Positions 20,740-57,976 of a stretch of 64,000 bases of DNA are shown here, piece after piece. A model generated the notes under the pieces. That model had not been told where the DNA came from, ran no database searches, and saw nothing but the letters and a program-made list of their open reading frames with translations. The first letter of the stretch is position 1, and the number at the start of each line of letters is the position of its first letter. The translations under genes were made by a program, and so were the position numbers. Where the stretch lies: contig OZ038459.1 in NCBI GenBank assembly GCA_964036195.1, positions 7,499,206 through 7,563,205 on the forward strand, in the 5' to 3' direction. The DNA comes from Sphaerolaimus hirsutus (lineage: Eukaryota > Nematoda > Chromadorea > Monhysterida > Sphaerolaimidae).

Positions 20740-21781
20740 ATTCCGTTGGACGTTTGGCTTGGGTTTATGACTCCTCCTGGATGACAACATTCAAGAGTTT
20801 CGGCCACGATGCATGGATCGGTAGAGTTATCGAGTGACCGTATTTCTTCTAATAGAACGGCAGCCTCCAATAGAGCGGCACCTCAAATAGGTAGAATGGC
20901 GCGTGTTGGCACATTTTCAGCCAAGCAAAGAATAGAATGGCAGCTTCCAATAGAGCGGCATCTCGAATAGAATAGCAGGTTGAAATTATACGTTGAAAAA
21001 CATTTGAAAAGTGTGGGTGAGAACAGTCAATGTGTTTCTAACTATGATTCAGGGGTTGTTTTCACATTTAGTTTTGTTTGAATTGATGCGTTGCTATGAA
21101 AATTGTAGTCGCTGGACGCTGATTGCACTTCAATCAATTGCTGATTCAATCAACTACTACAAAATGTTGCTCATGTTTCATTAAAAATACTATGTTCGAA
21201 TGAAAAATGTGTGAAAAAGATTGATAAAAAATAGAACGAGAGCCTCCAAAAGAACGGCAGGTGAAAAAGTTGACAAAAAATGGATCGGCACACTTCTATT
21301 TATTAGAAGAAATATGGTAATAAACTAGTAACATTGCAAAATGCCTTAGGCGCTTCCGCTTGCGTATACTCGGCGGACATCACACTTAGTATGGGAACAT
21401 ACCATAACCTATCTGAATAATGAACCAAAAATTATACATTTATTTCATCACAATATTCCGTTTTTATTCTGGAAGAGTTAATTACGAAATTTATCACAAG
21501 ATTTTATTCATCAAATTATGGTAGGATTCTGCGCATACTTTGCGGTCCGCCGAGTATACGCGCAAATACGTGAACGGCAGGAATGAGAGCCGTCGGCGGT
21601 GTATACTTTTGGCAGAGTGATGACGAACAGCCGTGCGACGATGTCGTCGCTGACGGGATTGAGATAGAGGATTATGAGGCAGGCAAAAATTGCATTCGAT
21701 TCAAACACGGTGACCCGAAACTGGAGAATAAGCACTATTACGACAAACAAGATTGGGAAATATGCGAGATACGCCGGAATG
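20740..21781 (+). CDS. Receptor copy 1: partial C-type lectin domain 0
   Basis: Exons 20740-20820 and 21581-21781, entering and leaving in phase 1. The first ends ...HDAWIG and the second opens MRAVGGVYFW, giving the typical CTLD core WIG...YFW. It continues through two conserved-type cysteines to DWEICEIR, the usual CTLD ending. The N-terminal strand and first cysteine of the fold are missing, so an upstream exon is expected. The intron is almost entirely MITE (20838-21317 and 21361-21564). The acceptor at 20739 (GTTTGAAG) has a weak pyrimidine tract, so the start is less certain than the rest. Confidence 0.72.
20838..21317. mobile_element. MITE with CCGTATTTCTTCTAATA termini (pogo/Tigger-like?)
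   Basis: A 480-bp element with inverted termini CCGTATTTCTTCTAATA and TATTAGAAGAAATATGG; TA follows the right end and GA (a decayed TA) precedes the left. The interior repeats ATAGAACGGCAG/ATAGAGCGGCA words. It starts 17 bp after a receptor splice donor. The same element, same length, is at 34547-35026, so it predates the duplication. A 100-bp relative is at 61359-61458. Confidence 0.7.
21361..21564. repeat. Short inverted-repeat element ending at a receptor splice acceptor
   Basis: Terminal inverted repeats TGCGTATACTCGGCGGAC (21361-21378) and GTCCGCCGAGTATACGC (21545-21561). The right end lies 16 bp before the acceptor of the exon at 21581. The element is also present in copy 2. Confidence 0.65.
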
Positions 21782-22131
21782 GTTTGTCTGATTTTTTTGA
21801 TCGAACTTCCCACAGTTAGAACACATTTATTTTTTTATTTTTTTTATTCATTCATTCTGGTCTGATATTACTGTACTGGGCGACCGTGTGATGCAAAAAA
21901 TCTTATACCGCAAATCCTCGAATAAGAGCCCCCTCGAATAACTCCCCCTCGAATAACTCCCCCCTCGAATAACTCGCCCTTGAATAACTCCACCTGTTTA
22001 CAAGGTGAGGAAAAAATAACTCCCCCTCTTGAATACCCCCCCCTCTGGATGAAAAGGATAGAATACACAAATACAAAACAATATTAGCCTACCACAGCGA
22101 CAGCAGATACATGATGTGTATGCAGTGTATA

Positions 22132-22696
22132 TAGGGTTCAAACGGGACCGCGGTCCCGGTACATGTTGGGACTGGGGCGGTCCCGGTCCCGACACCCCAG
22201 TCCCGGTCCCGACAATTAAAAAAAGCTAGTCCCGGTCCCGGTCCCGGTCCCGACCACCCAGTCCCGGTCCCGGTCCCGGTCCCGGAATTTTATAGCGGTC
22301 CCGACATTTGATGTTAAAAACGTATTTTTCAATGACCTTTTCAAAAAAATTTGCCAGAAATGGCACTTTGTAAGCGATTTTGTAGGCACATCTGAAAATT
22401 TTGGCGCGCGAGCGCGCAAATACCCACCCAATGACTACTATGTAATTTTCCGTAATGTGACAGCGTTAGAAAGGTCCCCAACAAGACCGCGGTGCCGGTA
22501 CATGGTTCGGCAAATCCCAGTCCCAGTTCCGACCCACCAGTCCCGGCCCCGGTCCCGGTCCCGACAATTGAAAAACGCCAGTCTCGGTCCCGGTCCCGGT
22601 CCCGACCCCCCCAGTCCCGGTCCCGGTCCCGGTCCCGACATTAGAAAATTTCTGGTCCCGGTCCCGGTCCGAAAATCTGGTCCCGTTTGAACCCTA
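22132..22696. mobile_element. hAT-like MITE filled with GGTCCC arrays
   Basis: 565 bp bounded by TAGGGTTCAAACG and CGTTTGAACCCTA, with 8-bp duplications AGTGTATA at 22124-22131 and 22697-22704. Copy 2 has a single AGTGTATA and no insert, an exact empty site. The interior is mostly (C)GGTCCC simple sequence on one strand. Confidence 0.9.
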
Positions 22697-22910
22697 AGTG
22701 TATACACATCTTTTCGTTGTTGGACAGTTAAATATAATATAATACCTGAATTACATGAGTTGACAGACTGCATCCATACAATGAATTAAGTCGAAGTTTT
22801 CTGAGGAAAAATTAAGTCCCCCTTCTATCGAATAAATCCCCCTTGAATAACTCCCCGTCAAAAACTATTTTTGCTAGGCATAATCCATAATCACTAATAC
22901 TCATTTTAAG

Positions 22911-25196
22911 GCCTTAATGAACGATGTCCACTGCACATGCCTTCTTCGTGCAAATACGACGCCAAAAGTGGCAAAGTCTACTTCGCCACGCCCGAACGGG
23001 CTGATACAGCCACTGGGGCTATTGCGCACTGCGCCAATTACTTTGGTGCAACTGCTCCAGTCTTCACGAATTTCGAGCTACTGCACGCCGTGCGTGACTT
23101 GGGGCTCAGCTCGACAATATATGGTGTCAGTTTCTTGGCCTGAAAACTACCGTATTTGCTCAAAAAATGCCCCTGGTGTTATTTGACAGTTGATTGAACT
23201 CAGTTCAATCAAGAATCATCTACTACACACACCTGGGGAAAAAAATTTTCATCAGGCTTTTTTGAGGGGGAACTATTCAAGGGGGTGGGGAAATTATTTA
23301 AGGCGGGATCATTATTTCATCAGAAGTTTCTATCAGTTCATACAAAAAAAAACATGCTTTAATATCACAATGACATGCCATTTTTATTCAAATTGGATAT
23401 AAAGCCGGGATTTCAGCTCAGAAGCATTTGAAGTGAAATGATGACTAACGATGGCAAACCTCCCAGAAAAAGTATTCAAATTTTAAAGTGTTTTTTTCTA
23501 AAATGAATTTTCGAATTTTTGAATTTTTTCCCAAATTAATTTTCGAATTTCAAATTTAATTTTCGAATTTTCGAATCTTTTTTGACAATTTTCTAATTTT
23601 TTAGAAAAAGATTGAATTTGAAGCTTAAAACACAGTATTTGGACTGTTTTCTTGTTTGGAGCCCCTTTTAACCTTAATTTCACTGTAAATGAAGCATGAC
23701 ATGACAGTTTCACTTCACTTTCACATGACAAATGGTAGAAACACTTACCGTACTTCCTCGTATTACCTACCCCCCCCCCCGGGAGTTTATTTTTTCAGAG
23801 TGGAAATTTTTAGTGGGGTTAAACGAGGGGGGGGGGGTATTTCGAGGGGGGGTCATGAAAATTCATAGTGCCCATTTTGTTGGGGGGTAATTCGAGAGTG
23901 GGGTATTGCGAGGGGGGGGTATTTCGAGGAAATACAGTATATGGATCAGTTTGCACCGTTTTTGCTTGGGCTGAATGCCTTCCAAAAAACGTTTGCGTGA
24001 ATGCCCCTCGGAAGACCCGCGAGCGATTTTTTTGATGAACCGGCATCTGTAACCGCGGAAGTAGAGCGCCGCGTTTCTTTCAATTGTTTGTGTGGCGCTG
24101 TGCACTTCTAAACGGATTTGATGGGGTCCACCGCTGCGCCACGGACGCCATTTCAATGTTTTTTAATGTGTGTTTTTTCATTACATGAGACTTTTTCAGA
24201 CCCACCGCATATCAATTGTTGCTTTATTTAGCACGCTGAACTTAAGACTGCATTTTGTCGCCTTGAATTACCTGAAAAATTCTAAAACTATTTTTGAATT
24301 TTCGAATTTTCGAATTTTTTGAATTCTGAGGTACAGCGTTGAAATTTCAGAATTAGATAATTCTAGTAATTGTGTGTAATGTCCCCAAAACATTAAGAAA
24401 AAATTATTATTTAATAAGTTATTTATTTTATGTCAAAATGTACACATTTTATGTCAACAACAAAAATTTTGAGTTAAAATTAATAACTACTTAAATAATG
24501 ATTAGTTTACAAAAAAAATTTTGGGACAACACACAATTACTAGAACTATCTAGTAATTCTGAAATTTCACCGCTGTATCTTTGTCTTTTGTGTTGTAATC
24601 AATTTTACGACATAATTTTATGTCATCATTTCACGTCAAACGCCGCTGAGCATAGGCGGCGCAAGGTCCCAATTTGTGCTTGTGACATTCACAATCACAT
24701 TGGCCAAAATTTGACCTTGTGACACTTTTTACTAGGTAAACTAGGTATTTCTGCTTGTGACACCGAAAATTCCGCTTGTGACATTCACAAGCGCACAAGC
24801 ACTTGCGCCACCTATGCCGCTGAGCTGTAATCCCGGCTTAACAAATAAATCATATGCCCTAAGGGAGGAATTATTCAAGCAAATACAGGATCTGTGAAAT
24901 TAAGCCGTCGCAAAGCAATTTTGCCAAAAGCTAAAAAAATCGTTTAAAAAATGCAAACGCATCGCAGGGCAATATAGGGATGATTTGGCTGTCTGCCAGC
25001 CGCGCGCCACCGAGCACAGTCTGGACGTGGCCCAATGGCGTGCCTTTTGACTGCGCCTTTTTCAGACCAACAGAGCCGAATGAAATGTACAGTGACGAAG
25101 ACATCTGTCTGATGTTCCCGACATATGGAGGTGTCGGAGTCTCTGATGCACGATGTCCGACCATTATTAACGTCGACTTTCCAGCTTTTTGTGAAT
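22911..25196 (+). CDS. Receptor copy 1: C-type lectin domain 1 (EPN type)
   Basis: Exons 22911-23123 (N half) and 24978-25196 (C half); phase 1 in, phase 1 out. The N half runs from CPLHMPSSCKYD to the first long helix. The C half has IWLSASR, a Trp-rich core (VWTWPNG), the Ca2+/sugar motif EPN (FRPTEPNEMY) and the closing FCE. EPN is the motif of mannose-type CTLDs, but the usual partner WND is not obvious (VDF in its place), so Ca2+-dependent sugar binding is not assured. The intron of about 1.85 kb carries MITEs at 23748-23937 and 24651-24816. Confidence 0.85.
23444..24310. mobile_element. Truncated hAT-like MITE (TAACGATGGCAAAC family)
   Basis: Left part of the element complete at 36912-37880 in copy 2. 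The interior is AATTTTCGAATTT-rich. In copy 1 the right terminus and the duplicated target are deleted. A TA-type MITE (23748-23937) is nested inside. Confidence 0.7.
23748..23937. mobile_element. TA-type MITE, CCGTACTTCCTCG termini
   Basis: 190 bp flanked by TA (23746-23747 and 23938-23939), ends CCGTACTTCCTCG and CGAGGAAATACAG, interior of C-run/G-run GGGGTATTTCGAG repeats. Copy 2 counterpart: 37213-37392. Confidence 0.75.
24651..24816. mobile_element. hAT MITE (CATAGGCGGCGCAAG), copy 1 only
   Basis: 166 bp, termini CATAGGCGGCGCAAG and CTTGCGCCACCTATG, 8-bp duplication CCGCTGAG at 24643-24650 and 24817-24824. Copy 2 has the empty site (CCGCTGAG once, at 38243-38250). A relative with its own 8-bp duplication is at 51711-51896. 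Confidence 0.93.
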
Positions 25197-25243
25197 GTTT
25201 GTTGTCTACTACTCTACTATGGCCCTTTATATACATATTTAGG

Positions 25244-25531
25244 ATTAGGGTGTCAACTTTCCGTTTTCCGTTTCCGCTTTCCGCAGGCAAAAATTTTACC
25301 GTTCCCATTCCGTTTTCCGGCTAATGCATAAATTTTTCAGTATCTGTTTCCGTTTGCGGGCACGTGCAAAACTTTTTCCGTTTCCGGTTTCCGCAGGTAA
25401 ACTTGTTCGGTTTCCGTTTTCCCGCAGTGCAAAAAATTACCGTTTCTTTTCGTTTCCGTTTTCCAGCAAGTGCAAATTTGTGTCGTTTCTGTTTCCGTTA
25501 AAAAAATTTGTTGACACCCTAATTATGATGC
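25244..25531. mobile_element. MITE with TAGGGTGTCAAC termini and TTTCCG arrays
   Basis: Ends TAGGGTGTCAAC and GTTGACACCCTA; interior is degenerate TTTCCGTTTTCCG with GCAAGTGCAAA words. Flanking octamers match only partly (TTTAGGAT / ATTATGAT), consistent with age. Present in both copies (copy 2 about 38672-38953). Confidence 0.75.
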
Positions 25532-26020
25532 TTGGCGTTGGCACCCACTATGCACAAATTTAAGAGCGTTGATATTTGTTTGGTAGCTTAGTGTGGTTGT
25601 GCAGGTGGTTTTTGTTGACACCACCCTGGTTTCAGCTGCATAGGCGTTGTCGATATCCAACGAATGCTAAACTGCACAACAAAAATTACAAAAAAACGAC
25701 ATAGGTATATTTAGCCACAGATTCTCATATTCTCATAATTATCATTTCAGCGGACAATTTTGAGTAAATTTTAAAAAAGTCGTGAGAAACATATACACTT
25801 ACATTTTATGCATTGAAAGGATCTGCTTTGAAACCATACGATCTGCATCAGAATCTTTTAAAAATTGATTTTATTTGTTGTGTGTGTCAGAGAGCCAATG
25901 CCAATGGATTTTCATCAATCCTAATAAGATGTGAGCCAATGTCAAACTTTTTCAATTTCTCATTTCATTTCCACATTAATGCACTTAAAAAAGTACATCG
26001 ATCGGTGTGTCCAACCCCAG

Positions 26021-26576
26021 ACTCTGATATCTGCGCACACTTGAACTACGGTGATACCACCGGCCTGCTGCCCAATGCGCCAGCCGCGCCGGACATCAGT
26101 TTCACGTTCAGTGGCACGTGCTACTTCGTGCCCGCGGCCCAGGCGGACGAAGGCGGTGCGCTGGCAGAGTGCCAAAAACACAACCTGCATGCTGAATTGG
26201 CTATACTGCAACATGCGTCCGCATTGGCTGAAGCCAGATCTCATCTGGTCAGTATTTTTCATCGGCGCGACCTTTGTGTTCTAAGTCCGTTTTCTACACT
26301 TTTAGTATTGGAAAACTTGAAAACTTTTTATTTTTGTCAGAATCAGGTTTTGCTGGGAAATCAATGCTTTTCAGGATTCTAGTGAAGGTTACTTGATCGG
26401 ACTGAGAAAAGCGTCGGGGGGAGTCTGGAAGTGGTCTGATGGCACGGAACTTGATCCGCTATCAAACTTGGCTATAGATACATCTGTATCCTGTGCTCGA
26501 GCTTACAAGGATTTTCCTACACCCTTTGTGGCATCTGATTGTACTCTTTCTACATCTGTGATGTGCCAACTTCAAG
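26021..26576 (+). CDS. Receptor copy 1: C-type lectin domain 2
   Basis: Exons 26021-26247 (phase 1 in, 0 out) and 26375-26576 (0 in, 1 out). The N half has FSGTCYFVPAAQADEGGALA, the typical CTLD start with helix 1. The C half has YLIGLRKASGGVWKWSDG and ends CTLSTSVMCQLQG, a classical CTLD close. The sugar-site position reads ELD rather than EPN/QPD. An alternative acceptor at 25993 would add nine codons; 26021 is preferred because CCAACCCCAG is the better acceptor. Confidence 0.85.
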
Positions 26577-26810
26577 GTAATTTATTTATTTATAACCATG
26601 AGAAATTTGGATTTATTCAGATGTATTTTTCTTGGGAAATCCAAAGATAGTGCAAAAGGATTTTCAGCTCTCATGGCTCAGGATCAGCTTTCATGGCATT
26701 TTGCCATTGTTAACCATGATTTGCAAAAACTTTGTATTTTAAATCTTGAGTTACAATTTTATATTACGGACAAAATTGGTTATGATTTTTTTGACAATGT
26801 TCCTCCAAAG

Positions 26811-27034
26811 TAGTGATGGAAAAGTGCCATGGCGCTAGCGCCAAAGGCAAAAGCACCACGGCGCTTTTGGCGCTTGGCGCTATTTTTGGCTGTCGCTGGG
26901 AACAAAATGCCTGGCGCTAGCGCCAAAGCGAAAAGCGCCATGGCACTTTAGGCGGTAAGCGCCATTTTGCTCTGGCGCCATCGGCGCTTGGCACTGGTGT
27001 TCGGGACAGCGCCATGGCACTTTTTCCATCACTA
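26811..27034. mobile_element. hAT-like MITE filled with GGCGCTTTTGGCGC arrays
   Basis: 224 bp with ends TAGTGATGGAAAAG and TTTTTCCATCACTA and 8-bp duplication CTCCAAAG at 26803-26810 and 27035-27042. The interior is degenerate GCGCCATGGCGC/GCGCTTTTGGCGC. Copy 2 counterpart is about 40097-40314. Confidence 0.9.
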
Positions 27035-27114
27035 CTCCAAAGTTACTTAGTCACATTCAAGTTTGCTAGCTGAGTGAGTCAAAAATCATTTCTTGTTGTC
27101 TCATAGTGCTACAG

Positions 27115-28221
27115 TATTGGAGACTAGTTCCCCGGCACTACATAAAAACATTTGTGATGCAGGGCCGCATGTGAATCCGCTCGTGGTGCATAGTGGTCAG
27201 TGTGAAGTGCTACCAGACTGGGATCCAGTCGACCCATACACTGTCCCCACGAATGAAGCCTGTGTGAATTTGAATGGCGACAACTACTTCATCACGTCCA
27301 GCACCTTCCAAACGTGGCCTCAGGCCATCCGCGGTTGTGCTGATTTTGGCGCTTCAATTGCAAAATTGGACTCGGGCCAAGAGCTGGTTACGTTGCTTCA
27401 ACTGGTAGCTACTGCGGGAATCCCACAGACAGAGGTGCGGTCCGCGCATCGCCAATTCACCATAGTTGTTAAAACTTATTTGCGCTTACTGAAAAATATG
27501 TATACATAAGTACATAAGTAAATACGTTTACGTTTTCTCCGGAACGAATATCTGTACCCTTTACGTGTACTTTTTGTACATGTGTACAGAAAATGTTATA
27601 TACAAAAAAAATTTGTGTTGCATAAATTGCAGAACTACTCAAATGAATTGAAATGGCTGCGAAAATACACCGAAGTTGCGACGGGTACGGGAAAGTGACA
27701 ACTCTCACTTATACTTTTACTCACATTTATGTTTTCCTGGTTACACAATCGAAAGAAATAACTCACTTCTATGTACATTTTGCCTGAATAAAAATGCCGG
27801 GGTTTACGTTTTCTCAGCTTTCACGCGATGGAAAAGTAAAAATGCTTACTTTACGTTTTCTGTACTCAGGGATGAGTAAAAAGATACTTTATGTTTACGT
27901 TTACTTTGAAAAACGTTCAGTACTTTAACAACTCTGCAATTCACATATCCTCCTTCAACCGAAGTAATAGACCATTCACTCACATCAATTCTCCTCTATG
28001 GCAGCAAATCCTCACGTCGATTCACTTCAACGCGGGGGCGTGGCGTTATCTGTCCCGCTCGGAAGCGACCGACGTTCCCTGGGCGCCCGGGCAACCCGAC
28101 AGTCCTGAGACCACTTGGTGTGCTGCAGCGGCTTGCAGCTCAGACCAGTGCAGCTACTCGAGTGTCAGCTGCGACGGCACAGAGTCCGCGGCGTACAGGG
28201 CACTTTGTGTCCTCAATGATG
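27115..28221 (+). CDS. Receptor copy 1: C-type lectin domain 3 (QPD type)
   Basis: Exons 27115-27434 (phase 1 in, 0 out) and 28005-28221 (0 in, 1 out). The N half contains GDNYFITSSTFQTWPQAIRG and an AKLDSGQELVTLL helix. The C half has the motif WAPGQPD followed by cysteines and closes YRALCVLND. QPD at this place is the galactose-type signature. No clear WND follows, so binding is inferred only weakly. Confidence 0.85.
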
Positions 28222-28392
28222 GTTCGATTTGGGGGAGGGGAGCTATGCAAATTCACCCATGTTTGCTATGATGACTTGGTAAAACCGTTTCTTAGAGCTT
28301 CATAGACAGCACTTTCGGTGGGGTTGAGGAGGGGGTTGGGGGGTATGCATACAAGTCAACAGACATCCACTTTTCAATTTTGATCACTGCAG

Positions 28393-29299
28393 AACATCTC
28401 AACGACGACCCATGTTCGTCAGTAGCCAGCGCCAGTGCCGGCCCACTGCATGACGTTACTTCCGCATCGTGCTTCTACACAACACCTGATCCGCCCATGG
28501 AAAGCCCACACAACACGATCACGGCTGGCATCCGGCACTGCAACGAGTTGGGGGGAGGCACGTTGGCCACGCTGTTCAACACCACACTCAAGCAGATGGT
28601 GCAGAAGCACTGGGCTGGCAAAATATTTGGATCGGTCAGTTGTCATTTTTGAGCAAATTACTGTATTTGCTTGAATAATTCCTCTGGGTAATTATTTTTT
28701 CTATTGACTTTTTTGAGGGGGAACTATTTCGGGCAGTGGGGAGGGGATTATAAAAGCGAAGGAATTTTTTCTCTCCAGAATTTTCAAGCATTTCTAACAA
28801 CAAATTACACCAAATATGCTTTATTGACACAATATTTTTTTGTTAAAATTCGGCACAACAAATTGATCAAATCTCTTAAGGAGGAATTATTCAAGGGGGA
28901 ATAATTATTTCCCCACCCTTCATACAGCGGGGGGGGATTATTCGAGAGGGGGAATCATTCAAGGGGGAACTATTCAAGGAAGCACGGTATTAGGTATTTG
29001 ATTTCATGTAGTTGTATGAGTAAACATCTTTTCCTCTCCACGATAGGGTGCGAGCAGTTTTCTCAACATTGGCCTCTATCGAAATTCCTTATTGGATACA
29101 AGCAGTGCATGCGAGAAGCCGCACGCGCACTGGTTTTGGATTGGCGGGGCCCCGCTGCCCACTGACAGGAGCCTGTGGGAGACGGATTTTGACACAACCA
29201 TCGCAGATGAAACTTGTGCTGGCATAAATCCCACAGTGCCTGAATATGTGAACACCCCTTGTAATATAAATGCACCAAACTTGTGCCGCAGGAGGGTCT
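28393..29299 (+). CDS. Receptor copy 1: C-type lectin domain 4
   Basis: Exons 28393-28634 (phase 1 in, 0 out) and 29047-29299 (0 in, 1 out). The N half has SASCFYTTPDPPMESPHNT and a helix ending LATLFNTTLKQMVQKHW. The C half has HWFWIGGAPLPTDRSLW and closes NAPNLCRRRV. The donor chosen is GTGAGT at 29300, which sets phase 1 and matches the next exon; GTCTGT at 29296 is a poorer choice. The intron carries a TA-type MITE (28661-28987). Confidence 0.85.
28661..28987. mobile_element. TA-type MITE, CTGTATTTGCTTGAATAA end
   Basis: 327 bp flanked by TA, with ends CTGTATTTGCTTGAATAATT and GAACTATTCAAGGAAGCACG. The counterpart in copy 2 is 42310-42620. Confidence 0.65.
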
Positions 29300-29334
29300 G
29301 TGAGTTTTTGTTGGGTTCTACTTGTTTTTACAGT

Positions 29335-31485
29335 ATTTATTTTTATTTAACACACATACCATGGCTGGCCCTACAAGTCAAGGGCATAAAATACAAACAG
29401 AAAGAAAAAATATAGAACTGACATCTAGTCGGACAATAAAAAAAAAGTTGAGAACAATAATTGTAATAATAATAATAATACACACATTTTCTAAGGCATA
29501 GCATTGGATTGAATAATACACATTTGCAGACTTAAGCAGAATTTTCACTGAACAATTGTAAAATTTAAAAAATGATTGACCTAATACGCATAATAAGGGT
29601 ATACGTGATACAAACAAACAGATATATGTACGCGAGATACATAACTTATTCAACTGTTAAACTACCTAGAAAACAACCAGGGCCCTGGATTTACGTAATG
29701 AAATACTTATAAACACCTTCCCGGACAAGTTCACCACCCATTTTTTTATTCCACTTCGAATGCAATATCTCCATCCATGGGAGTGTTATAATGCTGAAAC
29801 TTTGTATATATTAAGTTCTAAGACCCCCTTACTCCCCAACAATGGGGGGAGGTGCGGCGACTTACTACAGGGTGGGTCGCCCTATATGCAAAAAAATTTT
29901 GTGACGTTTTTGGTGTCCCAAGCAAGTTCACCACACACTTGATTAGCTACACTTTGAAGGCTATATCTCCAGCTGTGAGGGCGGTAGAAAGCTGAAATTT
30001 GGGGGATGTCTTGCCAACAATCCCCCTCACAATACACCAGTGGGGCGGCTGCCAACGACCCACTAAAGCACAGGTTACTGCATATAAATTTGATAAATTT
30101 TTTAAGAACAACCCAAGTGTCCCAAGCAAGTTCGCCACCCAACTGCATTATAAAAAAATGTTGTGAGAACATACCTGATATAAAATTCAATCAGATATGA
30201 ACCCTAGTTCTGCTCATTAAAATTTTTTCAGTAGGGCACCCACCCTGTCCCATAAACAGCAGATTGAAAATTTCACTTTAAACCAATTTTTTGTATCACA
30301 CTTAAAAAGTTGGTTTACAAAGTTCACTAGGGGAGGGTCTAAGGTTCAAAGTTATGTAAACAACATAACCTCTAAAATGCTTCCATAAGGAAATTTATTT
30401 GGGGTGAATGAAAAAGTGACAATTTTGTCAAATTTTCTTCCTGAAATGACATCATTTTGACATCATAGAATTCACCCCAAGTAAATTTCCTTATGGAAGC
30501 ATTTTAGAGGTTATGTTGTTTACATAACTTTGAACCTTAGACCCTCCCCTAGTGAACTTTGTAAACCAACTTTTTAAGTGTGATACAAAAAATTGGTTTA
30601 AAGTGAAATTTTCAGTCGGCTGTTTTTGGGACAGGGTGGGTGCCCTACGGAAAAAATTTTTTTGGCTGAAATAGTGTTCCAACCCGATTCATTTTTATAT
30701 TAGGTATGTTGTTGCAACATTTTTTTTATGTAGTTGGGTGATGAACTTGTTTTGGGACACTTGGGCTGTTTTTAGAAAATGGTTAACTTTATATGCAGTG
30801 ACCCATGCTTTAGTGGGTCATTGGCAGCCGCCCCACTGGTGGATCGTGAAGGGGGTTGTTGGCAAGACATCCCCCAAATTTCAGCTTTATACCGCCTTCA
30901 CAGCTGGAGATATGGCTCTTGTAGTGTAGCCAATCAAGTGGGTGGTGAACTTGTTTGGGACACCAAAAACGCCAAAAAAATTGTTGCATATAGGGTGACC
31001 CACCCTGTAGTGAGTCGCCGCACCTCCCCCATTGTTGGGGAGTAGAGGGGTCTTACAACTTTATATATACAAAGTTTCAGCTTTATAACACCCCCATGGA
31101 CGGAGATATTGCATTCGAAGTGAAATAAAAAAATGGGTGGTGAACTTGTCCGGGAAGGTGTTTATTACACATATCAGAGCAGAGCAGTTTTTTAGCAGAC
31201 TCTTCTAGTAAGAGATGACTTACATGTGGAAGTTAAAATCCCAGTACAAGTCTAATCTAATCGATCAGATTGTTGTATTTCATCTTGACTGCACAATTGG
31301 AATTTAAAATTTTATGTTTTAAGAAGGTAGAAATACATAAAAATGCAATACAATACGTTATCATAAGTGGGCTAGCTGAACATAGTTTTTACAGCATATT
31401 AGAGGCCAGCTATGTAGGTGTCTAATGCCTTAATGTGAGTGGAGATTAGTCTTCTCGACTTTGCGCAACTAATCTGTGAAGTATG
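29335..31485. mobile_element. Insertion private to copy 1, containing a 1.46-kb foldback
   Basis: Copy 2 lacks this stretch: the stalk-exon upstream sequence is contiguous there, near 43845. Short TATTTAT words at both ends may be the target duplication. The core 29709-31165 is one long palindrome. The left flank read on the minus strand ends in AAATAAAAATAAAT, reminiscent of a retroposon 3' end, but no ORF is recognised. Confidence 0.65.
29709..31165. repeat. 1.46-kb foldback (near-palindrome)
   Basis: The left half from ATAAACACCTTCCCGGACAA (29709) is the imperfect reverse complement of the right half ending at 31165, turning near 30437. Inner arms are also complementary (about 30318-30400 with 30475-30560). 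No transposase-like frame. Confidence 0.85.
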
Positions 31486-31629
31486 TATTTATGATTCTAA
31501 TGATACTCGTTTTTGATGCTGATATTCTATCTATTTTACTGAACTTGTCGATTTTGTGTATAATACACAGATCCATTATCCAAACCTCGTGTAAATACAA
31601 TTCGAAGTGCCTATCAAAAGTGTGCGCAG

Positions 31630-31775
31630 CCACACTGGGAGCATCGTGCACGCCGATGACGAGCAGCAGCACGTCCACGCCCACCACCACCAGCACGTCC
31701 ATGCCCACCTCCACCGGCACGTCCACGCCCACCTCCACCAGCACGTCCACGCCCACCTCCACCAGCACGATCACT
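31630..31775 (+). CDS. Receptor copy 1: Ser/Thr/Pro-rich stalk exon
   Basis: 146 bp, phase 1 in and phase 0 out. It encodes LGASCTPM followed by a run of TSTPTSTS-type repeats, probably an O-glycosylated mucin-like stalk. The acceptor is GTGCGCAG and the donor GTGAGT. The copy 2 version is exactly 72 bp (24 codons) shorter. The phase-0 exit fits the EGF exon at 52312 but not any lectin-start exon of copy 2. Confidence 0.75.
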
Positions 31776-32859: not shown

Positions 32860-33059
32860 NNNNNNNNNNNNNNNNNNNNNNNNNNNNNNNNNNNNNNNNN
32901 NNNNNNNNNNNNNNNNNNNNNNNNNNNNNNNNNNNNNNNNNNNNNNNNNNNNNNNNNNNNNNNNNNNNNNNNNNNNNNNNNNNNNNNNNNNNNNNNNNNN
33001 NNNNNNNNNNNNNNNNNNNNNNNNNNNNNNNNNNNNNNNNNNNNNNNNNNNNNNNNNNN
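32860..33059. other. Assembly gap (200 N)
   Basis: Exactly 200 N between the two receptor lectin blocks. ORFs spanning it have no meaning. Confidence 0.99.
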
Positions 33060-34448: not shown

Positions 34449-35490
34449 ATTCCGTTGGACGTTTGGCTTGGGTTTATGACTCCTCCTGGATGACAACATT
34501 CAAGAGTTTCGGCCACGATGCATGGATCGGTAGAGTTATCGAGTGACCGTATTTCTTCTAATAGAACGGCAGCCTCCAATAGAGCGGCACCTCAAATAGG
34601 TAGAATGGCGCGTGTTGGCACATTTTCAGCCAAGCAAAGAATAGAATGGCAGCTTCCAATAGAGCGGCATCTCGAATAGAATAGCAGGTAGAAATTATAC
34701 GTTGAAAAACATTTGAAAAGGTTGGGTGAGAACAGTCAATGTGTTTCTAACTATGATTCAGGGGTTGTTTTCACATTTAGTTTTGTTTGAATTGATGCGT
34801 TGCTATGAAAATTGTAGTCGCTGGACGCTGATTGCACTTCAATCAATTGCTGATTCAATCAACTACTACAAAATGTTGCTCATGTTTCATTAAAAATACT
34901 ATGTTCGAATGAAAAATGTGTGAAAAAGATTGATAAAAAATAGAACGAGAGCCTCCAAAAGAACGGCAGGTGAAAAAGTTGACAAAAAATGGATCGGCAC
35001 ACTTCTATTTATTAGAAGAAATATGGTAATAAACTAGTAACATTGCAAAATGCCTTAGGCGCTTCCGCTTGCGTATACTCGGCGGACATCACACTTAGTA
35101 TGGGAACATACCATAACCTATCTGAATAATGAACCAAAAATTATACATTTATTTCATCACAATATTCCGTTTTTATTCTGGAAGAGTTAATTACGAAATT
35201 TATCACAAGATTTTATTCATCAAATTATGGTAGGATTCTGCGCATACTTTGCTGTCCGCCGAGTATACGCGCAAATACCTGAACGGCAGGAATGAAAGCC
35301 GTCGGCGGTGTATACTTTTGGCAGAGTGATGACGAACAGCCTTGCGACGATGTCGTCGCTGACGGGATTGAGATAGAGGATTATGAGGCAGGCAAAAATT
35401 GCATTCGATTCAAACACGGTGACCCGAAACTGGAGAATAAGCACTATTACGACAAACAAGATTGGCAAATATGCGAGATACGCCGGAATG
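34449..35490 (+). CDS. Receptor copy 2: partial C-type lectin domain 0
   Basis: Exons 34449-34529 and 35290-35490, counterparts of 20740-21781. One visible amino-acid change is in the closing motif (DWQICEIR against DWEICEIR); a synonymous or neutral set of base changes accompanies it. The missing N-terminal part of the fold is not found upstream here either. Confidence 0.72.
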
Positions 35491-42041: not shown

Positions 42042-43806
42042 AACATCTCAACGATGACCCATGTTCATCAGTAGCCAGCGCCAGTGCCGGCCCACTGCAC
42101 GATGCCACTTCTGCATCATGCTTCTACACAACACCCGATCCACCGATGGAAAGCCCACACAACACGCTCACTGCTGGCATCCGGCACTGCAACGAGTTGG
42201 GGGGAGGCACGTTGGCCACGCTGTTCAACACCACACTCAAGCAGATGGTGCAGAAGCACTGGGCCGGCAAAACATTTGGATCGGTCAGTTGTCATTTTTG
42301 AGCAAATTACTGTATTTGCTTGAATAATTCCTCTGGGTAATTATGTTTTCTATTGACTTTTTTGAGGGGGGACTATTTGGGGCAGTGGAGACGAAATTTT
42401 TTTTCTCCAGAATTTTCAAGCATATTTCTAACAACCCGTTCCACTAAATATGCTTTATTAACACAAAATTTTTTGTAAAATTGGGCACAACCAATTGATC
42501 AAATCTCTTAAGGGGAAAGTTCAAGCGGGGAATTATTATTTCCCCACTCTTCATACAGGGGGGGGGGGAATTATTCAAGAGGGGGAATCATTCAAGGGGG
42601 AACTATTCAAGGAAGCACGGTATTAGGTATTTGATTTCATGTAGTTGTAAGCAGGGTTGGCAAAATCTCAGAGAAAAAAAATAAAATTAAAATAAAATGG
42701 AAAATTAAAGAATAAAATAAAATAAAATAAAATGGGAAATTAATAAAATAAAAATACAATTTTACTAAAATTCGAATTTTTGTAAAATTTTAGTAAAATT
42801 GTACAATAATTAGAATTTTTGTACAATTTTAGTAAAATTTTACAAAAACTTTAGTGTCTGTTAAATTCTATAGAAAGTTTTCTATCATGTTGCTTAAGTT
42901 CCGAGCTGCCAATTTGCAGAACTAGTGCCTTGTTGTATCTTTCATTGTTGTGATTGAAACATATCGTTGCTCAAAATTGCAAATTTTCACATTTTTAAAA
43001 ATATTTTCACCTTAAAGATCACTAATTTATATGATTTGTTTCCCATTTTCTTCGTTCCATACCTTGAAAAAGCCTATATATTGAACCACGCAAGCCCTCC
43101 CCCCACCCAAAAAAACAACAACCACATTTTAGGTATCTTCCCTTGGGAGGAGCAATTAGATGCATATATCCAGGACCTCCAGAGGGTCAAAATACAAAAT
43201 GCCGACCTCACAACTCGTGTCAAAAGTTTACATAAATTTTTTTTGTATTCATCTGCATGCTTCCAGCATGCACATTGTTTTATGTCCTTGCATCCAAGAT
43301 TTCCGATTTTTTGTAAAACTTTTGTAAAATATTTGTAAAATTTTTGTAAAATGGTTTCATTTTATTTTATTAATGACATTTCAGAATAAAATAAAATAAA
43401 ATAAACTGAAACATGAATAAAATTAAAATAAAATACAATTTTAATAAAAATAAAATACAATTTTAATAAAAATAAAATACAATTTTAGTAAAAAGAATTT
43501 TACTAAAACCAACCATGGTTGTAAGAGTAAACATCTTTTCCTTTCCACGATAGGATGCGAGCAGTTTTCTCAACATCGGCCTCTATCGAAATTCCTTATT
43601 GGATACAAGCAGTGCATGCGAGCAACCGCACGCGCACTGGTTTTGGATTGGCGGGGCCCCGCTGCCCACTGACAGGAGCCTGTGGGAGATAGGTTTTGAC
43701 ACAACCATCGCAGATGAAACTTGTGCTGGCATAAATCCCACAGTGCCGGAATATGTGAACACCCCTTGTAATATGAACGCGCCAAACTTGTGTCGCAGGA
43801 GGGTCT
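42042..43806 (+). CDS. Receptor copy 2: C-type lectin domain 4
   Basis: Exons 42042-42283 and 43554-43806; the intron is enlarged by the MITE 42652-43517. Replacements relative to copy 1 include HDVT to HDAT, NTIT to NTLT, GKIF to GKTF, the first residue of the second exon (G to D), CEKP to CEQP, WETD to WEIG and INAP to MNAP. Confidence 0.85.
42652..43517. mobile_element. hAT-like MITE filled with AATAAAAT arrays, copy 2 only
   Basis: 866 bp, ends CAGGGTTGGCAAAAT and AAAACCAACCATG, 8-bp duplication GTTGTAAG at 42644-42651 and 43518-43525. The empty equivalent is near 29013-29020 in copy 1. Arms are AATAAAATAAAAT simple sequence around a unique middle. A relative is at 59203-60111. Confidence 0.9.
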
Positions 43807-43990: not shown

Positions 43991-44064
43991 CCACGCTGGC
44001 AGCATCATGCACGCCAATGACGAGCAGCAGCACATCCACGCCCACCTCCACCAGCACGATCACT
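43991..44064 (+). CDS. Receptor copy 2: Ser/Thr/Pro-rich stalk exon (short)
   Basis: 74 bp, phase 1 in, phase 0 out, with the same TSSSTSTP-type repeat but 24 codons shorter than in copy 1. Its phase-0 donor (GTGAGT) is compatible with the EGF exon at 52312, 8.2 kb downstream. Confidence 0.75.
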
Positions 44065-50929: not shown

Positions 50930-50936
50930 CTACAAG

Positions 50937-52311: not shown

Positions 52312-53049
52312 CCCGACCTGTGCACCACGTGCGTCCACGACGAGCTGTGCATCGACCGCGGCTGGACAGTGCAGTGCCAGTGCGAGCCCGGCTACACGGG
52401 CAAGCTGTGCGACTTGGAAGTGGACGAGTGCGCCAGCTCGCCGTGCCAGAACAAAGGACAGTGTGTTGATGGGTTTAACAACTTCACCTGCGTTTGTTTG
52501 AAGGTAAGTCTCTTTTGCGTGTGTGGCTTACACCTGGTGGTTGTCAAAACATTTCTGGCGAAATAATAATCAACCTCACGCAAATAAACTCCCCTTGAAT
52601 TAAAATTTCCTCAAAATTTGTTGGCCAAATAATAACCCACTGGGGGTATTTTGAGGAAATATGGTATTTATCTCTTGCAGTTGAATGATTCTCTGTGAAA
52701 CCCCTCCTGTACGATTCAATATTGGGACACGATTTTGACATTCCTCAATTATTCACCACCCAAATTTTTTTATGATAAATTGTTATATCATGTCAGGCAT
52801 TCAGTGGGCCAACATGTGGTGAACTGCTAACAAGTTGTGGATTGCAAAGCTCCTCAGAAAAGGCCGCATCTGCCACAATGATGGCATCAACAACAGCCAC
52901 ATCTGTCGCTTTGATAATAATGCTCTCTGTCCTGTTGATTGTATTCTTCATTCTATGCAGCTTTTCCTTGCCACGGATTTATCATATCCTTGGCGAGGCT
53001 TCACTTTTGGCTGCCCAGTGTCTCATAATGCCTGTGAAATCGAGAATTG
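52312..53049 (+). CDS. Receptor: two EGF-like domains, then TM1-TM2
   Basis: Exons 52312-52503 (64 codons, phase 0 to 0) and 52797-53049 (phase 0 to 1). The first EGF-like domain is CTTCVHDELC...CQCEPGYTGKLC. The second begins DECASSPC (calcium-binding-type DE at the start) and is completed across the intron by AFSGPTC, giving all six cysteines. About 25 residues later TM1 starts (TSVALIIMLSVLLIVFFILC), followed by the short loop SLPRIYH and TM2 (EASLLAAQCLIM). No GAIN domain or GPS cleavage motif lies between EGF and TM1, and the 293-bp intron, which holds only a MITE remnant (to about 52672), offers no room for one. Confidence 0.85.
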
Positions 53050-53435: not shown

Positions 53436-53611
53436 TGATGGACATGGGTGCATTCTGCGATGCGGAAGCCAGCCCCGACTATTCCCCACCAAAGCTGAGT
53501 GGCGGCATGTGTGGCCTGGCCGCAGTCAGCCTTCACTACCTGTACCTGGTCCATTTCGGCGCCATGTTCGTCGAAAGTCTGCACAATTTCACGACATACA
53601 CTTATGTCTTT
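53436..53611 (+). CDS. Receptor: extracellular loop 1 and TM3
   Basis: 176 bp, phase 1 in, phase 0 out. It encodes GAFCDAEASPDY, then the TM3 cysteine and helix (GGMCGLAAVSLHYLYLVHF) and FVESLHNF. The pattern C...A..LHY.YL...FVE.LH matches family-B/adhesion GPCR TM3, with Ala where Trp is usual in the WM(L)xE position. Confidence 0.85.
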
Positions 53612-53978
53612 GTGACCAAACCCATACTGGTTTGCTATATTTTTATTGCATCACAACTTGATTATTTGGCTGCTCAGTAGTTTTAAATGTATGCCTATCT
53701 GGTTTTGCTATGAATTCACATTTTCTGTAACTCAATAAGTTTACACATTCAGTAGTCTGTTGCTGAACATCTATCTAAAATAAATTTAACATAGATTTAC
53801 ACATAGAGGATGCTGATTTGCATATACCTAGATACAAAACTTTGATTGAACAAAAAATTTTATTATTCAATGTACAATTTTGAAAGACAAATCGAAATGC
53901 TGAGCTTCTATACTATCACACGCGCGGCGTTTTCTATGCGTTTTCTATGCGTTCTATGCGTTCACCACACCATTTCAG

Positions 53979-54149
53979 AGCTCCTGGCAAGTCATTGTGA
54001 TTCTACTAATTTATCCACTGTTTCTGGTTGTTCCGACAGCAATCTTTTTCTTTGACGACTACTACCATGAAAACACCTGCTGGCTGAACTTATACACCGT
54101 GAACATGTTCATCGAGTCTGTGCCCATAATAATTCTCGCGCTGACCACG
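53979..54149 (+). CDS. Receptor: TM4, extracellular loop 2 and TM5
   Basis: 57 codons, phase 0 to 0. TM4 is VIVILLIYPLFLVVPTAIFF, followed by the loop with the conserved CWL (ENTCWLNLY) and TM5 (FIESVPIIILALTT). The CWL motif is a hallmark of adhesion/secretin-type GPCRs and pairs with the TM3 cysteine. Confidence 0.87.
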
Positions 54150-55197: not shown

Positions 55198-55550
55198 GTT
55201 GGTCAGCGCTTGGGTGCGTAGTTGAGGCCAGGCATATTACACACATAAACCCGGCACGCACATAATGAAAACCCGGCATGCACATAGACCCAGCACGCAC
55301 ATAGCGGCCCCTTAATCCACTCAATGGATACACTAAGATGCATTTGTGAAGATGGACGTTACATTGAAAAGTTCAGTAATTTAGGTTTAACAACTCTGTT
55401 AAGTACTTCAACAACTCTGTTCAGACGCGTATGATTGAAATGGCATTCCGATCCTATTCAAAATAAGGCAAATGTGCGCCGTCCCAAATCTCGATTCGAA
55501 ACCGCAGTCTCGTTTGAGCCATAGTGTCTGTTATTGCAAACCTCTCTGAC

Positions 55551-57773
55551 TAGTGATGGAAAAAGCGCCAAGGTTTTTGCGCCAAGCGCCAAAAGCGCCA
55601 TGGCGCTTTTCCGACCCCCAGCGTCAAGCGCCAATGGCGCCAGAGCAAAATGGCGCCAAACGCCAAAAGCGCCATGGCGCTTTTCTGGACCTCGGCGCCA
55701 GACGACAATGGCGCCAAGCGCCAATAGCGCCAGCGCCAAAAAAATTATTCTGCAAATTTGTTTGCGTAATAATAAGTACATGGTCGGGCTGAAAAGTCCC
55801 CGGCAGTGCTCGCCATTCGCGCTAGGGGTAATCTACGGTTATAAAATTTTAACACGTTAATATATCAGGTGTTTTGAGTTTTCACCCAAAATTTCACTCC
55901 TCTAGCTCCACCCACTGCGGAACTGTGGGGGCAAGGACGTATCCAGGATTTCTGAGCGGGGGGGGCTGCTTGTTTACGGAACCCGGCGAGGGGGGGGGCT
56001 CAGCCCCCCCCCCCTACAATTTTCCCTACACAGACGCGGAATGGCGTTTTGGCGCCAGCGCCATACATGGGTGTCACGCCATGGCGTCATTGGCGTTGGC
56101 GCTGGCGCTTAGAACCGCTGTATATGTATGTAAAAATACATACATATAGTGCAGCAGGCACAAAATTGAGTCCATTTCACATGGAGTTGGGACTAAAGCG
56201 ACTGAAAATACCGCTTGTGTGGTGGAATATGCGCGCATGCGCGCAAAATTTTTTTACAAACACCTCAAAAATTGATACCGAAAGTAGTATTTTCCTGCGT
56301 TTTTCATGTCTCACCCGGAAGGGGGGGGGCGCTGCAGCCCCCCCCCGCCCCCCCCCCCTGGATACGGCCCTGTGTGGGGGTTACAATTTCGGTCATTTTG
56401 TACTGATGTACAAATGGTGCTCTAGCTCAACGCTGCTTTAAGTTGTGATCATGAAACTTTGGCTAGTGTAAGCCACCAGTGTTGGCTATGTGCCAACACT
56501 AACCAACATTAGCTATGATATCATAAGCCTCGTCCATATTGCCATTACTGTCACTACCCTCACTACCAAATTCATCATTCTGCCTCTACGGTTGGTCAAT
56601 ACAGGTTAATACAGGAGGCGTTTTTCATGCACACTGCTGTTGAACACAGGTAATGTGTCCACTACAGATTAGTAATGAAACACAAATGAAATTTAATTGA
56701 CATAATAATTTACTGCACATTTCAAAACAACATTAAAATCACTGCAATACAACATGATCTCAGATGATCACCAAAAACATCCATCACAGTTCCCACGTTT
56801 CTTGCACATCACCCTGATCTGCATATTAATTTAACCTTTATAGCAATTTAGCAATGATGTTGATGAAAATGTTGAATACTATCAGCACATTGCCAACACT
56901 GGTGGCTTACACTAGCCAAAGTTTCATGATCACAACTTAAAGCAGCGTGGAGCTAGAGCACCATTTGTACCTCAGTACAAAATGACCGAAATTGTAACCC
57001 CCACAGTTCCAGTGGGTGGAGCTAGAGAGGTGAAATTGTGGGTGAAAACTCAAAACACCTGATATATTAACGTGTTAAAATTTTTTAACCGTAGCTTACC
57101 CCTAGCGCGAATGGTGAGCACTGCCCGGGGACTTTTCAGCCCGACCATGTATTTACATAGATCTGATGTGAATATCATATGTCATTGTACCTACCGCCCA
57201 TGTTTTGGTGTTGTGTTGATTGAACTTACTACAAAAGTGTTGCACACACACTAGTTCACTTCCAGTAAACTGAAAGAGTTTACTAACTGAAAAGATAGTA
57301 GACTCACAAATAAACTTTAACATTTACTGGAATCATATGTTCAACAATTATTTGATTGAGAGTAATGATAACTCATTCCAGTAAACTCAAATGTATCCAA
57401 AGCTGATTGATGAGTTTACTCTATTTGTAAACTTTTATTAAGGAGGGCTTTTGTGTTTTAAGAATTTATTATGTTTTTCACAGCTCTGATTTACAATTTC
57501 ACAAAGTGGCAAAATTATAGTAAAACTTGAAAATACAAAGGAAAATGATAATTACAGTACCAGATTCAGAGATGTTTTTCAAAATCAATATATAGTAAAT
57601 TACCATCATCAACAAATTTTCAAATATCAATGTATTTATTTATGTCCCTGTATTTTAAAAATTTTATCTTTATGGTTGGCGCTTTTTTGGCGCCATTTTA
57701 ATTGCTGGCGCCAATAGCGCCACCAGAAACTAGCGCCAAGCGCCAAAAGCGCCATGGCGCTTTTCCATCACTA
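55551..57773. mobile_element. hAT-like MITE (GGCGC arrays) carrying a nested foldback
   Basis: 2223 bp with ends TAGTGATGGAAAAAGCGCC and GGCGCTTTTCCATCACTA and 8-bp duplication TCTCTGAC at 55543-55550 and 57774-57781. Terminal GGCGC-array arms flank a foldback at about 55784-57150. Confidence 0.9.
55784..57150. mobile_element. Foldback with CATGGTCGGGCTGAAAAGTC termini (mariner-like?)
   Basis: Inverted arms from CATGGTCGGGCTGAAAAGTC (left) and GACTTTTCAGCCCGACCATG (right), flanked by TA on both sides. Arms continue for several hundred bp (for example 56377-56487 with 56894-57003). The left arm is interrupted by another insertion at about 55930-56376 with ends CAAGGACGTATCCAGG and CCTGGATACGGCCCTG. 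Confidence 0.8.
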
Positions 57774-57803
57774 TCTCTGACCTATTTCAATCGCCATACT
57801 CAG

Positions 57804-57976
57804 GTGTGATCGCGGTGAACACGAAGGACCTGTCGGTGAGCACGCTCGCGTCGGGTCTGAGCGTGGCGCTGGGCGTGTGCCACCTGCTCACGCACACCGT
57901 GGGCAACAAGCGCGCCAGGCAGCTCGTCAACAAGCTCTGCTGCTGCTGCTGCAAAACCAAGCAGAAGACGGGCTGA
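57804..57976 (+). CDS. Receptor: TM7 and C-terminal tail
   Basis: Phase 1 in, ends at TGA (57974-57976). It encodes GVIAVNTKDLSVST, TM7 (LASGLSVALGVCHLLTHTV) and a short basic tail with a five-cysteine cluster (NKLCCCCCKTKQKTG), a likely palmitoylation site. The order of a small-residue helix, H..., then a basic tail resembles adhesion GPCR TM7. Confidence 0.83.

What the first reader, a model, noticed from the sequence alone, without database searches (positions are those of the whole stretch)
20740..57976. Lectin-EGF-7TM receptor lacking a GAIN/GPS domain
Phase-consistent exons join CTLDs, a mucin-like stalk and two EGF domains directly to a seven-helix region with family-B/adhesion marks (TM3 C..LHY, ECL2 CWL, TM6 LPGL..W). 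Only about 25 residues separate the last EGF cysteine from TM1. Adhesion GPCRs normally carry an autoproteolytic GAIN domain there; a multi-CTLD receptor without one would signal by a different mechanism than tethered-agonist release. This is the best candidate in the window for an undescribed receptor type.
Basis: partly seen in the sequence, partly recalled or inferred. Interest (0 to 1): 0.85.

Follow-up and report, generated by a model that had tools for sequence, protein, structure and literature searches.

The report
Lectin-EGF GPCR family lacking GAIN domain
This stretch of an unnamed animal genome appears to hold a cell-surface receptor that joins lectin-like and EGF domains straight to an adhesion-type seven-helix signalling part, without the self-cutting GAIN domain that nearly all such receptors carry, and the same genome holds a small family of receptors built this way.

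Summary
The core of the finding holds; its extent does not. Six exons (52312-57976) encode two EGF domains, a linker of about 21-27 residues and seven helices (7tm_2, 36 bits; nearest solved relatives are adhesion GPCRs D1, L3 and E5). No GPS or GAIN was found. Upstream exons encode five C-type-lectin-like units (three confirmed by sequence search) and a Ser/Thr-rich stalk.

The claimed 20.7-58.0 kb gene runs across a 200-N scaffold gap. The lectin exons occur twice, once on each side of it (A 20512-31999, B 34227-44291; mostly 93-99% identical, dN/dS 0.16): alleles placed in series or a recent tandem copy. The supported gene is copy B plus EGF-7TM, about 34.4-58.0 kb; its 5' exons were not found.

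The decisive evidence lies outside the window: nine related 7TM copies (perhaps six loci) in the same genome. In five, the end of an EGF and the 7TM share one open exon; in L017, lectin, EGF and 7TM exons follow each other between two 7TM copies. Two other 7tm_2 loci of this genome do carry GPS.

That the window's lectin exons join its 7TM is inferred from paralogues. How it signals is inference; TM7 motifs are eroded.

The parts
34449..34529 (+). CTLD unit a, part 1 (copy B); the exon before it was not found
   Evidence: ORF and GT donor, phase 1, read; identical in copy A at 20740; CTLD by inspection only
35290..35490 (+). CTLD unit a, part 2 (copy B)
   Evidence: phase-1 acceptor read from the sequence printed; CTLD by inspection only
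36379..36593 (+). CTLD unit b, N half (copy B)
   Evidence: (join score weak)
38396..38624 (+). CTLD unit b, C half with EPN at the sugar-motif position (copy B)
   Evidence: motif role recalled
39441..39667 (+). CTLD unit c, N half (copy B)
39795..39996 (+). CTLD unit c, C half (copy B)
   Evidence: (second-ranked join)
40808..41079 (+). CTLD unit d, N half (copy B); acceptor position uncertain
41650..41879 (+). CTLD unit d, C half with QPD (copy B); donor uncertain
   Evidence: motif role recalled
42079..42283 (+). CTLD-like unit e, N half (copy B); acceptor uncertain
   Evidence: third-ranked join; by inspection only
43554..43806 (+). CTLD-like unit e, C half (copy B)
   Evidence: by inspection only
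43991..44064 (+). Ser/Thr-rich mucin-like stalk (copy B); ends uncertain
   Evidence: copy A has more units of an in-frame 24-bp repeat
52312..52503 (+). EGF 1 and first part of EGF 2 (acceptor could be 52288)
52797..53049 (+). End of EGF 2, linker without GAIN/GPS, TM1, TM2
53436..53629 (+). ECL1 end, TM3, ICL2
   Evidence: (donor revised by alignment to one-exon paralogues)
53979..54149 (+). TM4, ECL2 (CWL), TM5
   Evidence: hit by L011, not by L016
55041..55197 (+). ICL3, TM6
   Evidence: not hit
57804..57976 (+). TM7, Cys-rich short tail, stop
   Evidence: weak hits
20740..31697 (+). Copy A of the lectin and stalk exons, on the other side of the scaffold gap; not part of the supported gene
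32860..33059 (.). 200-N scaffold gap between copies A and B

Best explanation
The window holds one supported gene, copy B lectin exons plus EGF-7TM exons, about 34.4-58.0 kb, with 5' exons missing. It encodes a membrane receptor: five CTLD-like units, a short Ser/Thr stalk, two EGF domains, a linker of about 21-27 residues, an adhesion-type 7TM and a short Cys-rich tail. There is no GAIN/GPS. It belongs to a family of such receptors in this genome. Shown by sequence: the order EGF-linker-7TM, absence of a GAIN domain at the junction, kinship of the 7TM with adhesion GPCRs, CTLD-EGF-7TM exons in series in a paralogue, purifying selection. Inferred: that the window's lectin exons splice to this 7TM. 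Inferred, most likely mechanism: the lectin array binds surface glycans (microbial or cellular), and clustering or pull is passed through the disulphide-rich EGF pair directly to TM1 and the extracellular loops of an uncleaved receptor, instead of by release of a tethered agonist.
For: EGF-7TM model in phase; 7tm_2 and EGF above Pfam cut-offs. Profile of the 7TM (window plus 5 paralogues) against the PDB: 15 sequences at E<=10, of which 14 are adhesion GPCRs (ADGRD1 6.7e-10, ADGRL3 1.6e-8, ADGRE5 1.1e-7), 1 is a prostaglandin receptor (0.52) and none is a secretin receptor. EGF end and 7TM in one open exon in 5 of 9 related copies: L011, L013, L015, L016, first copy of L017; all five have 7tm_2 above the cut-off, and the partial EGF is above the PF00008 cut-off in 2 of 5 (L016, L017) and otherwise rests on sub-cut-off hEGF (L013, L015) or on alignment (L011). 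L017: CTLD, three EGFs and 7TM exons in phase, lying between two 7TM copies on the same strand; the joined protein has Lectin_C 26.6, EGF 39.6 (3 stretches) and 7tm_2 24.1 bits, all above cut-off, with no GPS/GAIN. Controls: GPS exons of two other 7tm_2 loci of this genome, L003 and L005, score 36.6 and 47 bits in the same scan. dN/dS 0.16 for lectin exons A against B and 0.09-0.48 over the 15 pairs of six paralogue 7TM ORFs.
Against: No transcript. The stalk-EGF intron is about 8 kb and holds retroelement-like sequence, so two neighbouring genes are not excluded for this locus. The window's CTLDs are not found by a profile of three paralogue CTLDs (shuffled sequences scored higher). Pfam calls Lectin_C in the window only on the joined 705-aa part (not). 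Several joins in the lectin part are weak or not the top-ranked ones. Of the seven other 7tm_2 loci first fetched (L001-L006, L008), a motif scan of about 3 kb each showed a GPS in two only; introns may hide others, but how exceptional GAIN loss is in this genome is therefore not measured. TM7 motifs (NSLQG) are missing in the family alignment, which speaks against ordinary G-protein coupling. The first exon(s) and signal peptide were not found.
Confidence: 0.7

Rival explanations
1. Two neighbouring genes: a secreted or anchored multi-CTLD/mucin protein (44.1 kb and upstream) and a separate EGF-7TM receptor (52.3-58.0 kb).
For: About 8 kb and an LTR-element-like ORF separate them. A profile of three paralogue CTLDs does not find the window's CTLDs above shuffles. 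Gene-prediction fusions of Lectin_C with other domains are documented in lancelets (PMC4967905, passages).
Against: Same strand, phase-0 join available. In L017 CTLD and EGF share exons and the set lies between two 7TM copies. I did not look systematically for a start exon of a separate EGF-7TM gene.
Confidence: 0.2
2. One reading: one receptor with about ten CTLDs, copies A and B both in one gene from 20.7 to 58.0 kb.
For: Both copies are open, on one strand, and under purifying selection.
Against: A 200-N gap lies between them and they are near-identical copies with insertion-sized differences. Other receptor loci of this assembly show similar near-identical pairs involving small contigs (L013/L015 96.5%, L016/L017 97.3%).
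Confidence: 0.1
3. Same architecture, but the linker acts as an uncleaved built-in agonist, or the receptor is a non-signalling adhesion/endocytic protein.
For: The linker is conserved among five of the six paralogue ORFs and similar in the sixth, L011. The TM7 class-B motif is eroded, and a multi-CTLD ectodomain recalls the endocytic mannose receptor group (PDB match of unit d).
Against: The linker is not conserved between the window gene and the paralogues. A set of residues in TM2-TM5 and ECL2 is invariant over the six aligned sequences, which suggests retained 7TM function.
Confidence: 0.4
4. The EGF-7TM exons are a decaying pseudogene or chance ORFs.
For: Some donors are weak (GTTGGT twice); a tRNA-like sequence in an intron suggests element insertion; the TM6 exon was not hit by the paralogues in tblastn.
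Against: The joined model aligns over its length with open relatives at 28-31% identity, with many invariant columns; one-exon relatives hit five of six exons in order without any splice model, though only two or three with E below 1e-3.
Confidence: 0.06

Closest known systems
Adhesion GPCRs (class B2), nearest solved 7TM: ADGRD1, then ADGRL3, ADGRE5
   Same: 7TM sequence relationship; long modular ectodomain
   Different: No GAIN/GPS found, so no GPS-linked tethered agonist; TM7 motif eroded
EGF-TM7 receptors (ADGRE1-5, CD97)
   Same: EGF domains before an adhesion-type 7TM
   Different: Those have a GAIN domain between EGF and 7TM (recalled as a family feature; GAIN of E5 seen in passages of PMC13197933); here EGF meets TM1 directly and CTLDs are added
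Amphioxus adhesion GPCRs with a Lectin C-type domain (PMC2246102, passages)
   Same: C-type lectin domain on an adhesion-type GPCR
   Different: The passages say that many amphioxus adhesion GPCRs have GPS, not whether the lectin ones do; not compared by sequence here
GPS-less adhesion-type receptors of the sponge Amphimedon (12 of 40; PMC4302439, passages)
   Same: 7tm_2 without GPS
   Different: Some are described there as having short N-termini, possibly incomplete models; here a lectin/EGF ectodomain is present
ADGRA1, the stated GAIN-less exception in eutherians (PMC13197933, passage)
   Same: Adhesion-type 7TM without GAIN
   Different: A lectin/EGF ectodomain is present here; that A1 has lost most of its ectodomain is recalled, not read
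Mannose receptor group (MRC1, LY75)
   Same: Tandem CTLDs in one membrane protein (PDB match of unit d)
   Different: Single-pass endocytic receptors (recalled); no 7TM

Membership tests
Adhesion GPCR (class B2) | 7TM of the 7tm_2 family, nearer to adhesion than to secretin receptors | tested here: met
   Pfam 36.3 bits against cut-off 20.6; 14 of 15 PDB sequences at E<=10 are adhesion GPCRs, none secretin
Adhesion GPCR (class B2) | GAIN domain with GPS next to TM1 | tested here: not met
   Last EGF Cys and TM1 in one exon in the window and in 5 paralogue ORFs; no GPS/GAIN at E<=10 in two joined models while two control exons score 36.6 and 47 bits
Adhesion GPCR (class B2) | Tethered agonist (Stachel) freed at the GPS | tested here: not met
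   No GPS; whether the linker acts as an uncleaved agonist could not be tested
Adhesion GPCR (class B2) | Long modular ectodomain | tested here: met
   Two EGFs in the window, CTLDs upstream (their splice to the 7TM is inferred); L017 joined protein Lectin_C + 3 EGF stretches + 7tm_2
Secretin receptors (class B1) | Hormone-receptor (HRM) domain before TM1 | tested here: not met
   No such Pfam match reported at E<=10 in the two joined models
Methuselah receptors | Methuselah N-terminal ectodomain | tested here: not met
   No such Pfam match reported at E<=10 in the two joined models
C-type lectin-like domain proteins | CTLD sequence signature | tested here: met
   Units b, c, d by PDB sequence search; units a and e by inspection only; Pfam only on the joined lectin part (not 16, 56, 90)
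C-type lectin-like domain proteins | Calcium/sugar site (EPN or QPD plus WND) | tested here: inconclusive
   EPN in unit b and QPD in unit d at the expected place by inspection; no WND seen; motif meaning recalled
Adhesion GPCR (class B2) | G-protein signalling | not testable with these tools
   Needs cell assays

The most novel reading that the evidence does not exclude
In this animal lineage an adhesion-type GPCR lost its GAIN domain and expanded into a family of lectin-array receptors in which glycan-binding CTLDs are coupled through EGF domains directly to the 7TM: pattern-recognition or self-recognition GPCRs that signal without autoproteolysis or Stachel release.
Probability: 0.45. Interest if true: 0.78.

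Novelty: new variant of a known kind. Interest (0 to 1): 0.62.

Why it matters
A recent review states that the GAIN domain is found across nearly all adhesion GPCRs, the exception named being eutherian A1 (PMC13197933, passage). A natural family with a large adhesive ectodomain but no GAIN would be a test case for whether such a 7TM can be driven by its ectodomain without cleavage or a tethered agonist. It also would link C-type lectin recognition, common in invertebrate immunity (recalled), directly to a GPCR scaffold.

Tried and rejected
Protein database search with the EGF-7TM model returned 11 proteins, all with EGF-type and none with 7tm_2 domains in the listing. With the 7TM part and the lectin part of the 1078-aa draft nothing reached E<=10 (4299 and 7991 candidates scored). 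So the species' own proteome is probably not in that database and no close relative was reached; the word filter hides distant ones. The organism was not identified. A profile of three paralogue CTLDs did not find the window's CTLDs. No upstream exon of CTLD unit a was recognised in 14.4-20.8 kb or 33.1-34.5 kb. The first exon-3 donor (53611) was replaced by 53629 after alignment with the paralogues; searches before one search used the older model. The paper searches listed no matching description. Structure prediction was not run: the stated rule names unspliced window translations and loci from other tools than genome search/get_from_genomes, so neither a spliced receptor nor the paralogues seemed admitted. 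Genome-wide counts of GPS loci, of this family and of copies A/B could not be made, because the genome search answered with results only once.


Full report
What was checked. The window is G000:C15:7499206-7563205 of a 348-Mb genome in 762 contigs. BEL/Pao and tRNA-like elements, introns and adhesion-type GPCRs point to an animal (inference); I could not name it. A 200-N gap lies at 32860-33059.

EGF and seven helices. On the + strand, exons 52312-52503, 52797-53049, 53436-53629, 53979-54149, 55041-55197 and 57804-57976 join in phase to a 379-residue piece that ends in a stop codon. Pfam finds 7tm_2 (35.6 bits, cut-off 20.6) and EGF (32.2 bits, cut-off 21.5) in the first version, and 7tm_2 at 36.3 and EGF at 22.9 bits in the full draft. 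By sequence against the PDB the 7TM meets ADGRD1 (8.8e-6) and ADGRE5 (0.0035). A profile of the 7TM with five paralogues gives 15 sequences at E<=10: 14 adhesion GPCRs and one prostaglandin receptor at 0.52, no secretin receptor.

No GAIN. The last EGF cysteine and TM1 are in the same exon, with 21 residues between the cysteine and the first strongly hydrophobic 19-residue window in the window gene and 19-23 in six paralogue ORFs. A loose GPS pattern gave four matches in the window that look like chance. Pfam at E<=10 reports no GPS or GAIN in the 1109-aa draft or in the joined L017 receptor, while the same scan gives GPS at 36.6 and 47 bits for exons of L003 and L005, two other 7tm_2 loci of this genome. 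Of the seven 7tm_2 loci first fetched that are not of this family (L001-L006, L008; about 3 kb each), only these two showed a GPS by the motif scan. The other five may have it beyond an intron or not at all, so I cannot say how unusual GAIN loss is here.

The family. The one answered genome search (7tm_2) listed 21 places. L007, one of eight loci it delivered, is related to the window model (tblastn E 1e-33, 29% over 327 aa). I then fetched the surroundings of twelve places, that of L007 included (14 stretches). tblastn with the window model and L007 finds eight of the twelve related (L011, L013, L015, L016, L017, L018, L019, L020); the other four (L021-L024) gave no hit at E<=0.01. L017 holds a second related copy, so nine copies are seen outside the window. 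Five of the nine (L011, L013, L015, L016, first copy of L017) run from the end of an EGF into TM1-TM7 in one open frame of 338-377 codons. All five give 7tm_2 above the cut-off (25.3-37.6 bits). The partial EGF is above the PF00008 cut-off in L016 and L017, is seen only as hEGF just below its cut-off in L013 and L015, and gives no Pfam match in L011, where it rests on alignment. The second L017 copy has its EGF end in another frame, and L018-L020 are split by introns. Some pairs are nearly identical (L013/L015 96.5%, L016/L017 97.3%, L018/L020 up to 97.8%) and involve small contigs (C75, C535, C24), so they may be alleles; about six loci remain. The window model aligns with the six ORFs at 28-31% identity. 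tblastn of L011 and L016 against the window hits five of six exons in order, three (L011) or two (L016) of them with E below 1e-3, and not the TM6 exon; L016 also gave three weak hits elsewhere.

Lectin domains in the family. In the L011/L012 stretch and in L017 one exon holds a CTLD C-terminal half followed by an EGF: Lectin_C 30.6 and 30.2 bits (cut-off 22.6), EGF 26.2 and 23.2 (cut-off 21.5). The L011/L012 one lies about 14 kb before the 7TM exon and could belong to another gene. A nearer exon there gives Lectin_C 25.2. Of the two L015 exons sent, one gave 16.4 bits, below the cut-off, and the other no Lectin_C match at E<=1. L013 and L016 show similar CTLD exons by eye. In L017, exons of CTLD, EGF, EGF, EGF and 7TM follow each other in phase within about 4 kb, between two 7TM copies on the same strand. 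The joined 533-aa protein scores Lectin_C 26.6, EGF 39.6 with three stretches, 7tm_2 24.1. Weak points: the last join has a poor donor (-2.6) and the join to the further upstream CTLD-EGF exon is poor too.

Lectin domains in the window. Five CTLD-like units, each from two exons, lie upstream. The joins are in phase, but several are weak (b: -4.3; a to b: -0.1) or were chosen over higher-ranked ones to give a sensible CTLD (c, d, d to e). Units b, c and d meet CTLDs in the PDB (best E 1.4e-5, 3.2e-5, 0.0013). Pfam Lectin_C reaches 34.1 bits on the joined 705-aa part but is not reported for single units or for the whole draft. A small profile of paralogue CTLDs does not find them. Units a and e rest on inspection.

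The duplication. Copy A (20512-31999) and copy B (34227-44291) match block by block: eight blocks measured, 94.6-99.4% in seven and 93.1% in the stalk block; a ninth block (21828-22131) is 89.4% and was not remeasured. Over ten exon pieces, the stalk left out, there are 34 synonymous and 19 non-synonymous differences, dS 0.076, dN 0.012, ratio 0.16, so the exons have been under purifying selection. The divergence is uneven: 11 synonymous differences in about 319 sites up to unit d part 1, 23 in about 154 after it. Either two alleles were placed in series at a scaffold join or a tandem duplication is recent; I cannot tell which. In neither case is a single gene with about ten CTLDs the simplest reading.

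Mechanism. Shown: EGF-7TM architecture, absence of GAIN, kinship, constraint (dN/dS 0.09-0.48 over 15 pairs of paralogue 7TM ORFs). Inferred: glycan binding by the CTLD array and direct transmission through EGF domains to TM1 and loops in an uncleaved receptor. Against ordinary coupling stands the loss of the TM7 motif: where ADGRD1 reads LNSLQGLFIF the family reads differently. For retained function stands the set of invariant residues, for example in TM2, TM3 and ECL2 (six sequences). A built-in uncleaved agonist in the linker and a non-signalling adhesion role remain open.

Comparison with print. Passages read: adhesion GPCRs of amphioxus include a Lectin C-type domain (PMC2246102); 12 of 40 sponge adhesion receptors lack GPS (PMC4302439); [quoted passage not shown] GAIN is nearly universal with the eutherian A1 exception (PMC13197933); lancelet Lectin_C fusions can be gene-prediction errors (PMC4967905); Ciona adhesion receptors mostly carry only GPS (PMC2396169). 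The listings of eight paper searches showed no report of a CTLD-EGF-7TM receptor without GAIN; the library lacks most subscription papers and holds no bioRxiv preprints.

Change on checking. Confidence in the best explanation went from 0.72 to 0.70, and the pseudogene rival from 0.05 to 0.06, because the TM6 exon was not hit, the EGF part is above the Pfam cut-off in two of five one-exon paralogues only, and several lectin joins are not the top-ranked ones.

Noticed in passing
window 2017-14491: Intact BEL/Pao-type LTR element: two 1260-bp repeats 99.6% identical and one 2911-codon ORF with Pao peptidase, reverse transcriptase, integrase parts and a Monjiviricetes-type fusion glycoprotein match (55 bits), i.e. 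with an envelope-like part.
   Followed up: partly
window 48134-51127: Likely LTR element between stalk and EGF exons: a 673-codon gag/protease-like ORF (48533-50554) with a repeated stretch at 48134 and 50837.
   Followed up: no
window 53216-53287 (-): tRNA-like sequence with anticodon CTA (Rfam tRNA 50 bits) inside the receptor intron; probably a tRNA-derived SINE rather than a suppressor tRNA (the reading is inference).
   Followed up: no
L013/L015, L016/L017, L018/L020: Near-identical receptor copies involving small contigs (C75 89.9 kb, C535 102 kb, C24 27.9 kb; L016 and L017 are both on small ones): uncollapsed haplotypes are possible in this assembly.
   Followed up: partly
family 7TM alignment A2: Short C-tail with a run of cysteines in the window gene and most paralogues, and a conserved extra cysteine seven residues after the last EGF cysteine.
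   Followed up: no
window 31667-31769 and about 44002-44064: Stalk repeat (24-bp unit) differs in copy number between copies A and B but stays in frame.
   Followed up: no
L017:8822-9814 (-): Second receptor copy whose EGF end is in another frame than its 7TM ORF: a frameshift, pseudogene or assembly error.
   Followed up: no
window 14.4-18.1 kb: Exon-like ORFs of an upstream host gene (four tested) with no Pfam match above cut-off; identity unknown.
   Followed up: no
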